Of a stretch of 64,000 nucleotides of DNA, positions 12,762 to 63,515 are shown piece after piece. The translations under genes and the position numbers were made by a program. Location of the stretch: assembly GCA_004794785.1 (NCBI GenBank), contig SJOL01009969.1, positions 1 to 64,000 of the forward strand. The letters are read 5' to 3'. The notes below the pieces were generated by a model. The model searched no databases, was not told the origin of the DNA, and was given only the letters and a program-made list of their open reading frames with translations. The stretch comes from Opisthorchis felineus. Lineage: Eukaryota > Platyhelminthes > Trematoda > Opisthorchiida > Opisthorchiidae. Numbering within the stretch: the first letter of the stretch is position 1; every line of letters starts with the position of its first letter.

Positions 12762-12839
12762 TATAGATTTCGTCACGAAGATGAAGTCTATCCAGTTTGG
12801 GGTAGATTGGCTTCAATAATAGAACAGCGTTTCCACTGA
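12762..12839 (+). pseudogene. Gene A, N-terminal lobe exon (first active-site side), stops early
   Basis: After a good acceptor (tttgtttgcag, ending 12761) the frame reads YRFRHEDEVYPVWGRLASII, then EQRFH and TGA (12837-12839). 'VYPVWGRLASIIEQRF' can be aligned with 'QYYGEIGIGTPPQSF' of cathepsin D, which lies just before the first catalytic Asp-Thr-Gly. The stop falls just where that motif should begin. The match is short, and the call depends on position within the gene. Alternative: chance. Confidence 0.35.
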
Positions 12840-13415
12840 GAATTCCTAATTCTCGTTGCACTGCTAATATGACATTGTTAGCTTACAAGTAAGGCTAATT
12901 TACAGGTTGATTAAATCTTTCTTTTTAGTAGTCGTCGCTTGAGGAGCCGGGCAAAAATGGCTGTGTGATGCGGGCTCTGTGACTGAAAGATGAACAGAGC
13001 TTTACCCTGTCTAAATGTATTGAGCACACCACATACCAGCCGATCTTGTCGGAACTGATTCGACTACTAGGTGGAATGTTTCTAGTTGTACTCTTTGGAG
13101 ATTCGTGAGCTGCACACTGCTGCCGAATGAAGCAGATGCATAGTTAATTTCGGCTTTTCAGCGTAGATTAGCTCTACTCACAAGACAAATCTCATCGCAT
13201 GACCAACGAATTTACATGTTGGTTAAGCAAGTCCAGGATAATTACAGTTCAGCGGCCTAAAATCGAATGACCGAAACTGACCTTTGCATTACAGAACCTA
13301 GTTAAAGTAATACTCAGGTATAAGGGAAAAAATCTGTAGAGTGTAATTTAACCGCGCAAGGCGGGCTTTAATTAGGAAACTTGAGCAACTACTTATGGGT
13401 GTTGTTTTGTTGCAG

Positions 13416-13551
13416 GATATATGAACTCTGAAAAAAACTGGTATGGCTGCGCACAAATGATCCACTATCGAAATGGTTCAAACCGGACCAACAGTTATAT
13501 TAACCACAGCCATATCACCTGTTTCAATTTTGATAACTCTATGAACACAAA
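13416..13551 (+). pseudogene. Gene A, N-lobe flap-region exon
   Basis: A clean acceptor (gttttgttgcag) precedes an open frame with WYGCAQMIHYRNGSNRTNSY, then INHSHITCFNFDNSMNTK. It lines up with the cathepsin D stretch from 'C...HxKY.S..SSTY' through the flap 'F.I.YGSGSLSG', but the flap Tyr-Gly is Phe-Asp. Two N-x-[ST] sites (NGSN, NRTN overlap; NHS) would be glycosylated in a secreted protein. A donor may lie at 13552 (aaa|gtacaa); the frame stays open to a TGA at 13577. Confidence 0.45.
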
Positions 13552-13725
13552 GTACAATCAATATCCGGAATCTACTTGATACGCGCCATACAACGTTTTG
13601 CTGTATCCGATTTGATGGTTCATAAAACACTACTGAGGTTCATATTGTTAAAAGTCGTGAGATTCCATATCTGATCCAAAACGTCAGTTGAACATAGCAG
13701 ATGTGCCTCTAGGATAAAGAATCAG

Positions 13726-13895
13726 CACCTCAAGCTAACATTTGGAAATTTCAATCAGGCTGACTATTGTTTGTGTTTGGACATGTTTCACGGGCACACG
13801 TGAGCCACTGAGTTAACCAAGAAAAAACAGAGACCTTCTGAACTCACGGAGATTTTAGAGCAGCGGCGTATTATTATTGTTCGGGGTATTACCTT
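13726..13895 (+). pseudogene. Gene A, 'FGE..FDG..FDN' exon with internal TGA
   Basis: The frame gives LTFGNFNQADYCLCLDMFHG, a TGA at 13801-13803, then TELTKKKQRPSELTEILEQR and IIIVRGITL. This is collinear and nearly gap-free with cathepsin D 'TFGEA...FDGILGLAYP...VFDNL...IFSFYL'. Phe-Asp-Gly is Phe-His-Gly here. The donor is a plain GT at 13896, leaving phase 2, which matches the one-base start of the next exon so that the joined codons read L-N-E-D, like 'YLNRD' of cathepsin D. The TGA inactivates this copy unless it is a sequence error. Confidence 0.5.
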
Positions 13896-14060
13896 GTCAG
13901 CGAGATCCAGGGTATAATTTCTAATATAGTTTGATATCAATGTATAGAAGGCGACAAAGTGCTCAATTGCCGCACGTGTGTAATTCATGATAAAAAAAAG
14001 TCGATTTCATGATTTGCAGCTTACAGTCTTTAAAAAACGCAACTATTGATTTCTACGCAG

Positions 14061-14186
14061 AAATGAAGATGGAGTGTACGAAAACGGAATTTTCTCCCTT
14101 GGTGAAATTCATGATTACCGATTTGTTGAGCCACTTGTATACCTTCCCCCGGTGCTCCCGTATTCATGGGTAGTTCAAGCTACCAA
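14061..14186 (+). CDS. Gene A, exon from 'LNxD' to the YW block (126 nt)
   Basis: Flanked by acceptor ttgatttctacgcag and donor gtgagttt. It encodes NEDGVYENGIFSLGEIHDYR, then FVEPLVYLPPVLPYSWVVQA. This matches cathepsin D '..DPDAQPGGELMLGGTDSKYYKGSLSYLNVTRKAYWQV': hydrophobic 'G-I-F-S-L-G' for 'G-E-L-x-L-G-G', Tyr for the YY block, and Ser-Trp-Val for Tyr-Trp-Gln. It ends in phase 2; the next exon at 16856 supplies one base, giving Lys then ISLGQ, so the join is exact. The frame is fully open. Confidence 0.65.
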
Positions 14187-62004: not shown

Positions 62005-62251
62005 CTTTTCCCAGAGCTCGCTCATTGTCCAGTGAGCGTGAAACATGCCAAATTCAACAGATAACATGGGATAGGTATTGGCATTTTTGCAGTCTAGTAA
62101 ATATGCACCCCCACTCATTTGGCTAATGTCCACTCCTAGCAACCGATGAGCATTCTCGATTTGCTGTTGAGGCCCATAGAAGTAAGGGACTCCGGTGTTG
62201 AACAGAATGTTGCAGTCCTGCCAACAGATTACGTCCTGCCCCAGCGAAATT
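62005..62251 (-). CDS. Gene C, 247-nt C-lobe exon, Asn-Thr-Gly active site
   Basis: Acceptor catatttgttgtag, donor gtaagtat. Encodes ISLGQDVICWQDCNILFNTG, VPYFYGPQQQIENAH, then AYLLDCKNANTYPMLSVEFG up to ELWEK. Open throughout and the same length and phase as in A and B. Of the three it keeps most of the motif: only Asp to Asn separates Asn-Thr-Gly from the active Asp-Thr-Gly. The intron before it resembles the gene A intron, showing duplication at DNA level. Confidence 0.82.
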
Positions 62252-62677
62252 CTACAACAAATATGCCATGAATGCGATGGAATTATATCACATAAGCTGG
62301 CTATCGAAAATATACGGGAAAATCCAAACGGAAATACAATCAAGGGAGTTTAATCAGCTCTATTTCGAGGCAGTATCCTATATTTCCTTGTTAAGGTTGA
62401 AAATACCATTGCATTTATATAAACCTTACTACATGTTTAGATCATCTTGTCAAACATTTAGCTGCAAGGTTAAATTGCGTATCCAAACAGAGCATGCATT
62501 TTAGACAGCTTCGATGCAATGCTGATAATTTGTCGTTTAGTTTTTAGATCACAAATATCAGATGAAATCTGTCAACAAGATTGATGGAAACTTGCACAAG
62601 CAATAGGCTCAACATGATTTGACTGTTCCAGAAAGCAACCACAAACTCAGATAGTTTTGGAGTGTCCATTAGTCACC

Positions 62678-62715
62678 CAATATAACTTCTTGTCAGGGTA
62701 CGCTGGTTCAAGCTG
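62678..62715 (-). pseudogene. Gene C, small Tyr-Trp exon remnant
   Basis: Between acceptor gccgccaatgcag and a GT at 62677 the frame reads QLEPAYPDKKLYW. It corresponds to gene A FVEPLVYLPPVLPYSW and to cathepsin D 'Y.PVTRKAYW'. Only 38 nt remain of an exon that is 126 nt in gene A, so part has been deleted. Confidence 0.35.
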
Positions 62716-62816
62716 CTGCATTGGCGGCAAAGGTTACTTTACAGAGCGCGCGAGATAGGGGCAAGTTTCAAATGATATGCGTAATCGGTTCGTTCGCGTT
62801 ACCAAGAGGCCATTCA

Positions 62817-63034
62817 TTGGAGACGATATTGGTGAAGCACGATTGCGTAATTTCTGCCGGTGGCAGTAACATTGGGGGCATTAAGACCCAATGTATGCAT
62901 TCTGGGAGATACCAGCTGTCTATATGGCGTAACGGGTTAGCATTTTAATGCTTGATTGAAATTCCAGAAACGTTTCACCACTCTGTCGTTTTTACTCGGC
63001 ACAAAGCTAGGCAGATATAGCAGTTCGGTGTTAC
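62817..63034 (-). pseudogene. Gene C, third exon region
   Basis: After acceptor acttcacag the frame gives VVKRFWNFNQALKC, a TAA, then VTPYRQLVSPRMHTLGLNAP and YAIVLHQYRLQ. 'F.NFNQA' is shared exactly with gene A (TFGNFNQA at 13742-13765), and the distance to the hydrophobic end segment is similar, so this is the 'FGEA...FDG...FDN...FSFYL' exon. It is much more eroded than in A. Confidence 0.4.
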
Positions 63035-63169
63035 CTGTGAAGTGTAATTAACTTAACCACTGTGTGAGAGTTCGTGTTCGTGTTACTACTTGTCAATTAT
63101 CAACATGGGCAATATAATGTTTCCAAAGCACCCAATCAATGTCTCGAAGACAGTGACTTATTTCCCATG

Positions 63170-63515
63170 TCATCTGCCTCCAAAGTCACACTTATGGTCC
63201 ACAAAATCGTACGGATCACACAAATATAATGTATCTTCTGCTGTCAACAGCCCAGCTGATGCCACGCCGGCGCTGGATTCGAAGTCACAGAGCCATAAGA
63301 TGACTCTCACTCGATTATTAGGCCATTCGGTGCAGGAAGAGTAATATGTCCGTACAACGCGGGCACACATATCTGAAAAGCTGCGCTGGGTGAATACCTA
63401 TGACTGTTCCATTCGAATGCTCGTAGGGTTTCGTCGTTCAGTTTTTGCACCACAAAAATAAACCGAAAACTCTGTAGCGGATACAGGGTGATTTCTACTA
63501 GAAAATGGTTCAAGG
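63170..63515 (-). pseudogene. Gene C, N-lobe region (active-site strand, flap, FGE)
   Basis: The first frame reads LNHFLVEITLYPLQSFRFIF, then VVQKLNDETLRAFEWN. This matches 'YYGEIGIGTPPQSFTVIFDTGSSNLWVPS' with Asp-Thr-Gly replaced by Val-Val-Gln. Near 63392 the homology passes to the next frame: VRTYYSSCTEWPNNRVRVIL, then SAGLLTAEDTLYLCDPYDF and VDHKCDFGG. That matches 'KYDSSKSSTY.KNGT.F.I...SLSGYLSQDTV......FGEA'. The order and spacing are those of cathepsin D without gaps, so a 1-2 nt indel, not an intron, best explains the shift. Confidence 0.6.

What the first reader, a model, noticed from the sequence alone, without database searches (positions are those of the whole stretch)
12762..63515. 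Cluster of catalytically dead cathepsin D-like genes
At least three copies (A 12.8-17.9 kb +, B 26.1-29.4 kb +, C 63.5-58.5 kb -) and several fragments (18.3-19.7, 50.4-51.2, possibly 31.3 kb) encode a family A1 aspartic-protease fold whose catalytic motifs are replaced. Seen directly: exact 247-nt exons, matching phases, homologous introns and C-termini. Known: inactive A1 members exist elsewhere (mammalian pregnancy-associated glycoproteins, cockroach Bla g 2) with non-proteolytic roles. Inference: this lineage expanded a pseudo-pepsin family, some members of which have since decayed.
Basis: partly seen in the sequence, partly recalled or inferred. Interest (0 to 1): 0.88.

Follow-up and report, generated by a model that had tools for sequence, protein, structure and literature searches.

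The report
Inactive digestive-enzyme-like genes in liver flukes
A liver fluke carries a cluster of genes shaped like the protein-cutting enzyme cathepsin D, but with a key cutting residue swapped in the copies examined; the complete copies look preserved by selection, so they probably do a different job, while other copies have decayed.

Summary
The core of the finding holds; several details do not. The window is Opisthorchis felineus. Three exons of exactly 247 nt encode an A1 (pepsin-fold) C-lobe with Asn-Thr-Ala/Gly in place of Asp-Thr-Gly. The exon was found 18 times in the 630-Mb genome, six times on each of three contigs: a clustered family, not a dispersed repeat. Gene C is complete: seven exons, 369 aa, identical to database protein CRM22_010579, PF00026 at 3e-23. 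Only its last two exons lie in the window. Its N-lobe keeps the catalytic Asp (DTS for DTG); flap Tyr and C-lobe Asp are gone. A (three C-lobe exons) and B (two) are fragments. The claimed fragments at 18.3-19.7, 31.3 and 50.4-51.2 kb, and the claimed starts of A and C, are not supported. The 16 close database hits are all Opisthorchis or Clonorchis. Nine loci with all four central exons have median dN/dS 0.39; six of nine very close pairs are near or above 1. Best reading: secreted, non-proteolytic pepsin-fold proteins, probably binders; expression and function unproven.

The parts
62005..62251 (-). gene C (CRM22_010579) exon E5, 247 nt, C-lobe with NTG in place of DTG
   Evidence: splice borders; Pfam Asp 5.3e-5; identical to database protein P0001
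58483..58638 (-). gene C exon E6, C-terminus (WAFGHKL...FTVFD), ends in stop. The other five exons lie outside the window on the same contig at 66889-67017, 69500-69690, 69728-69955, 69990-70077 and 70114-70184
   Evidence: (100% identity over 369 aa)
14062..14187 (+). fragment A exon E4 (NEDGVYENGIFSLGEIHDYRF...VVQATK)
   Evidence: (E 6.9e-9)
16856..17102 (+). fragment A exon E5, 247 nt, NTA in place of DTG
17725..17880 (+). fragment A exon E6 coding remnant; no in-phase AG acceptor, so probably not joined in frame to E5
   Evidence: acceptor read from the DNA by eye
26057..26303 (+). fragment B exon E5, 247 nt, NTA in place of DTG; no E4 or N-lobe exon found for it
   Evidence: for absence
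29257..29400 (+). fragment B exon E6, in phase with E5
   Evidence: borders read from the DNA by eye

Best explanation
A clustered family of cathepsin D-derived proteins, so far seen only in Opisthorchiidae. SHOWN: pepsin-fold homology over both lobes; gene structure and a complete member; C-lobe catalytic Asp replaced (Asn mostly, Ser or Lys in a few); flap Tyr lost in nearly all; N-lobe Asp kept as DTS; C-lobe cysteines kept in the database proteins; constraint among loci with all four central exons; stops or missing exons in others, including A and B in the window. INFERRED: intact members are secreted (hydrophobic N-terminus, an N-glycosylation sequon, a dibasic RQRR/D or PKR/D site in the short propeptide, all read by eye; no signal-peptide program was run), fold into the two-lobed pepsin shape, cannot hydrolyse peptides by the two-aspartate mechanism, and use the altered cleft or the surface to bind a protein or peptide partner (binding protein or inhibitor decoy). 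Fragments A and B are by-products of duplication and decay.
For: Homology: full gene C against PF00026 3.3e-23 over profile 3-315, and against solved cathepsin D and renin chains, best 1.6e-13. C-lobe site: Asp in 0 of 15 database proteins that cover it (Asn 12, Ser 2, Lys 1); NT in 17 of 18 genomic E5 copies, the other (R) reading SNA. N-lobe: DTS in 8 of 8 proteins that cover it; VDT[ST] in 10 of 10 genomic E2 exons read, 4 broken or weak ones of the 14 matches left out. Flap Tyr: 0 of 10 proteins, 1 of 10 genomic exons (locus P). Of the other A1 matches the 7 N-lobe exons that I read keep DTG (6) or DSG (1), and the one C-lobe exon read keeps DTG. Constraint: 36 pairs of 9 loci, median dN/dS 0.39, 35 pairs at 0.30-0.62. 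The altered active-site loops are the better-kept part: mean conservation 0.85 against 0.58 (E2, 10 rows) and 0.85 against 0.61 (E5, 18 rows); the loop limits were chosen by me. Cysteines 245, 249 and 327 are kept in every family protein covering them and 290 in all but P0003. Species interleave in the tree, so several lineages seem to predate the species split.
Against: The N-lobe Asp is fully conserved, which a purely surface-acting protein would not need. Locus P still reads Tyr-Gly-Thr at the flap. Two genomic E5 copies lack one of the C-lobe cysteines (Q and M). Pairwise dN/dS is a rough method, the pairs are not independent, dS is high (0.56-1.22 in 35 pairs), and pair P-K is 1.03. The genome-wide PF00026 search (126 of 264 candidates scored) listed none of this family's exons: single exons are too divergent for it. 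E6 was seen only for C, D, the remnants A, B, H and O, and, through database proteins, E and K; the genome search for E6 did not complete.
Confidence: 0.72

Rival explanations
1. The whole cluster is a dying gene family with no function; open frames persist only because the losses are recent.
For: A and B lack N-lobe exons; 4 of 18 E5 copies hold stops. On E5 (about 80 codons, few changes) the nine pairs with dS below 0.2 have dN/dS B-F 2.10, B-I 1.79, F-I 0.97, J-L 2.44, L-M 0.98, P-K 1.15, A-H 0.73, J-M 0.77 and N-Q 0.39; each of these pairs involves an incomplete or stop-bearing copy.
Against: 8 of 9 loci with E2-E5 have no stop in those exons despite dS of about 0.6-1.2 between most of them; median dN/dS 0.39; related lineages survive in O. 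viverrini and C. sinensis.
Confidence: 0.15
2. The proteins are still hydrolases that work with an altered dyad (N-lobe Asp plus C-lobe Asn, or Asn turned to Asp after translation).
For: The N-lobe Asp is invariant where read and the C-lobe residue is Asn in most members.
Against: Ser or Lys replaces it in 3 of 15 proteins; the flap Tyr and the N-lobe Gly are also lost. Asp to Asn at this position is a classical inactivating change (recalled, not from a call).
Confidence: 0.08
3. The copy number is an assembly artefact: divergent haplotypes of a few genes.
For: Some loci lie in matching stretches: A-H 93.2%, B-I 91.0%, N-Q 94.8%, K-P 90.2%, J-M 92.5%. The assembled worm is highly heterozygous (PMC6530080).
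Against: Heterozygosity is given as 1 in 131 bp (passages of PMC6530080), far below 5-10%. Many other listed pairs are only 70-82% alike at DNA level, and species interleave in the tree.
Confidence: 0.05

Closest known systems
Cathepsin D / family A1 peptidases (PF00026), including the fluke's own DTG-bearing copies
   Same: Both lobes align end to end; the E5 exon has the same intron phases as one DTG-bearing cathepsin D gene of the same worm (about 241 nt there, counted by eye, 247 here); C-lobe cysteine pairs kept.
   Different: C-lobe Asp and flap Tyr replaced, N-lobe DTS, only one commonly kept N-lobe cysteine, short propeptide with a dibasic site, 5' exons of gene C split by 34-37 nt microintrons.
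Bla g 2 and Per a 2 (cockroach inactive aspartic proteases)
   Same: Inactive A1-fold proteins; PMC9541408 (passages read) calls them inactive and of unknown function.
   Different: Unrelated lineage; their substitutions differ (recalled, not tested); no comparable cluster tested.
Mammalian pregnancy-associated glycoproteins
   Same: Multi-copy secreted pepsin-fold family with inactive members (recalled). Database names for three C. sinensis relatives (P0006, P0008, P0014) say 'pregnancy-associated glycoprotein'.
   Different: That name looks transferred by similarity; no mammalian member is among the 35 hits, and no shared role is shown.
Expanded A01 peptidases of flukes
   Same: PMC4183426 (passages) reports 41 A01 members in C. 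sinensis against 5 in S. japonicum, 7 in S. mansoni and 1 in E. multilocularis; PMC7973311 (passages) reports 28 aspartic proteases in the Calicophoron transcriptome.
   Different: The passages read count them as proteases; no dead subfamily is mentioned in them.

Membership tests
Peptidase family A1 fold (PF00026) | Profile match over both lobes above the curated cut-off | tested here: met
   83 bits against 19.9, profile 3-315
Peptidase family A1, active enzyme | N-lobe catalytic Asp in DTG or DSG | tested here: not met
   Asp kept, but triplet DTS in 8 of 8 proteins and VDT[ST] in 10 of 10 genomic exons read
Peptidase family A1, active enzyme | C-lobe catalytic Asp in DTG | tested here: not met
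   Asp in 0 of 15 proteins and 0 of 18 genomic exons
Peptidase family A1, active enzyme | Flap Tyr (pepsin Tyr75) | tested here: not met
   0 of 10 proteins; 1 of 10 genomic exons, locus P. P0001 has a Tyr one column earlier, so the alignment is a little uncertain there
Cathepsin D lineage | C-lobe cysteines of the 206-210 and 249-282 pairs (pepsin numbering, recalled) | tested here: met
   Cys 245, 249, 290, 327; 290 missing in one protein (P0003)
Cathepsin D lineage | Conserved intron positions and phases in the C-lobe | tested here: met
   E5 phase 2/0; only one DTG-bearing gene and one exon compared
Pregnancy-associated glycoproteins | Descent from the ungulate trophoblast gene family | tested here: inconclusive
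   No mammalian hit among the 35 (best non-fluke hit a lizard A1 protein at 27% identity), but no such protein was placed in the tree
Catalytically inactive A1 homologue | No peptidase activity | not testable with these tools
   Needs a bench assay

The most novel reading that the evidence does not exclude
Opisthorchiid flukes evolved a dedicated set of secreted pseudo-pepsins whose altered cleft (invariant N-lobe Asp facing a C-lobe Asn) binds, without cutting, peptides, inhibitors or host proteins in the bile duct: a duplicated decoy or binding repertoire built from a digestive enzyme.
Probability: 0.25. Interest if true: 0.7.

Novelty: new member of a known kind. Interest (0 to 1): 0.5.

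Why it matters
A01 genes of flukes are counted in print as proteases (41 in C. sinensis); at least part of the opisthorchiid set should not work by the two-aspartate mechanism. That bears on enzyme counts, on target lists, and on the automatic name 'pregnancy-associated glycoprotein' given to fluke proteins. It also offers a compact natural case of a protease fold kept by selection after losing catalytic residues.

Tried and rejected
Rejected: gene starts at 12.8 kb (A) and 63.5 kb (C), and fragments at 18.3-19.7, 31.3 and 50.4-51.2 kb; Pfam on nine three-frame stretches upstream of E5 in A, B and C found nothing. A first reading of the N-lobe with an E2/E3 junction at 'DGRIW' was dropped on seeing the microintron; two searches bore that out. 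Rfam found nothing in the window. Conserved tblastx peaks at about -5.1 and -5.5 kb of the E5 exon of locus D held stops in several copies and were not taken as exons. In-23 loci L and M share the same upstream DNA, so gene counts printed there are too high by one in places, and the L-M and A-B lines are self-overlaps; none of these is used.

Not obtained: structure prediction, genome-wide E6 count, any expression data, a codon-model likelihood test. The literature statement rests on nine searches (listings) and passages of four papers; the held library lacks most subscription journals.

Full report
WHAT IS THERE. The window's three 247-nt exons are real: A 16856-17102 (+), B 26057-26303 (+), C 62251-62005 (-), each with AG/GT borders, entry phase 2 and exit phase 0. 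A genome-wide six-frame search with the C exon gave 19 matches (28 candidates, all scored): 18 of this family, six on each of contigs C1536 (the window's), C1190 and C531, and one weak match to an ordinary cathepsin D exon on C1762. 14 of the 18 are free of stops. By the script, 13 of 18 are exactly 247 nt and two are 241; in three the script set no border (one, locus G, reads by eye as 247 with a GTGGGG donor). A genome search with the Pfam profile itself gave 111 exon matches elsewhere and none on these three contigs (126 of 264 candidates scored).

GENE C. Comparison of the paralogous loci exposed the upstream exons, and splicing gave a complete gene of seven exons, 70184 to 58483 on the minus strand of the contig: 71, 88, 228, 191, 129, 247 and 156 nt, all six introns GT-AG, three of them 36, 34 and 37 nt. 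The 369-aa product is identical, residue for residue, to database protein CRM22_010579 of Opisthorchis felineus, on a contig of 255,082 bases, the length of C1536. This names the organism and confirms the model independently; the published annotation drew partly on RNA-seq (PMC6530080, passages), which hints at expression but does not show it for this gene. The same paper describes a microintron peak at 37 bp, more often near 5' ends. The exon translations of locus E shown likewise appear in CRM22_007131 (P0002). Only E5 and E6 of gene C are inside the window.

FRAGMENTS. The E2 and E3 searches put no match in positions 1-64000 of C1536, and tblastn of relatives against the window found only E4, E5 and E6 of A and E5 and E6 of B and C (one search shows 8 of 35 queries, the printout was cut). 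A's E6 has no in-phase acceptor. A and B have counterparts H and I in the same order on C1190 (93.2% and 91.0% DNA identity); N-Q (94.8%) and K-P (90.2%) are other close pairs. With a reported heterozygosity of 1 in 131 bp (PMC6530080, passages), pairs 5-10% apart are more likely segmental duplicates than alleles. Nine loci have E2, E3, E4 and E5 (C, D, E, F, G, J, K, N, P); K has one stop in E3.

ACTIVE SITE. In database proteins covering each site: N-lobe triplet DTS in 8 of 8; flap Tyr in 0 of 10; C-lobe Asp in 0 of 15 (Asn 12, Ser 2, Lys 1). In the genome: VDT[ST] in 10 of 10 E2 exons read (4 of the 14 matches, broken or weak, were left out; one of these, O, reads VDSS) and a flap Tyr in one, locus P; C-lobe NTA 14, NTG 2, NTV 1, SNA 1 of 18. 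Of the other A1 matches in this genome I read eight: 7 of 7 N-lobe exons keep DTG or DSG, and the one C-lobe exon keeps DTG. The altered loops are better conserved than the rest of their exons: 0.85 against 0.58 in E2 (10 rows), 0.85 against 0.61 in E5 (18 rows). C-lobe cysteines are kept in the database proteins, bar one site in P0003; genomic copies Q and M each lack one.

SELECTION AND DESCENT. Nei-Gojobori dN/dS over E2-E5 for 36 pairs of nine loci: median 0.39; 35 pairs lie at 0.30-0.62 and one (P-K) is 1.03. On E5 alone, the nine pairs with dS below 0.2 are B-F 2.10, B-I 1.79, J-L 2.44, P-K 1.15, L-M 0.98, F-I 0.97, J-M 0.77, A-H 0.73 and N-Q 0.39; each involves an incomplete or stop-bearing copy, and each rests on few changes. 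The method is crude and the pairs are not independent. A protein search gave 13 hits with gene C alone, itself included (1077 candidates), and 35 with the alignment (6421 candidates); 16 are Opisthorchis or Clonorchis, and the next is a lizard A1 protein at 27% identity. The search needs shared 5-residue words, so more distant fluke members could be missed. In a tree of 30 rows (B, I, O and R left out; P0001, P0002 and P0016 stand as loci C, E and K; P0013 lacks the C-lobe) the 26 family rows form one group with 100/100 support against four other A1 proteins, on a long stem, and O. felineus, O. viverrini and C. sinensis rows interleave: several lineages seem to predate the species split. The E5 intron phases equal those of one ordinary cathepsin D gene of the worm, which fits descent from that lineage.

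HOW IT PROBABLY WORKS. The N-terminus is hydrophobic, followed by an NET sequon and a short propeptide with a dibasic site (RQRR/D in C, PKR/D in E), read by eye. I infer secretion and a two-lobed pepsin fold that cannot cut by the two-aspartate mechanism. Conservation of the altered loops points to a role for the cleft itself, so non-hydrolytic binding is the most likely use; the partner is unknown.

LITERATURE. Expansion of A01 in C. sinensis is in print (PMC4183426, passages). In nine searches I found no report of the dead subfamily (listings seen, four papers opened at passages). Inactive A1 proteins are known elsewhere (PMC9541408, passages), so this is a new family of a known kind.

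Noticed in passing
window 3711-5165 (-) and 5343-5768 (-): Reverse transcriptase (PF00078, 3.6e-27) and a weak endonuclease-RT match (below cut-off): a non-LTR type retrotransposon remnant.
   Followed up: no
window 46443-47551 (-): RNase H-like domain and integrase core (PF17917, PF00665): an LTR-type element remnant.
   Followed up: no
window 2388-3799, 5115-5485, 35337-35704, 40874-41972: A repeat present several times in both orientations, 74-86% identical.
   Followed up: no
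L057 (C1190:103800-105400): A further family locus with E2, partial E3 and E4 matches; no E5 match lies near it. Its N-lobe triplet is DTT.
   Followed up: partly
P0016 (CRM22_002313), P0014, P0015: Short database models of 181-199 aa that hold only the C-lobe; P0016 joins a signal-like start directly to E4. Possibly annotation round a broken N-lobe, possibly real one-lobe products.
   Followed up: partly
window 18760-19317 (-): 186-aa open frame with a sub-threshold match to NLI interacting factor-like phosphatase (E 0.004).
   Followed up: no
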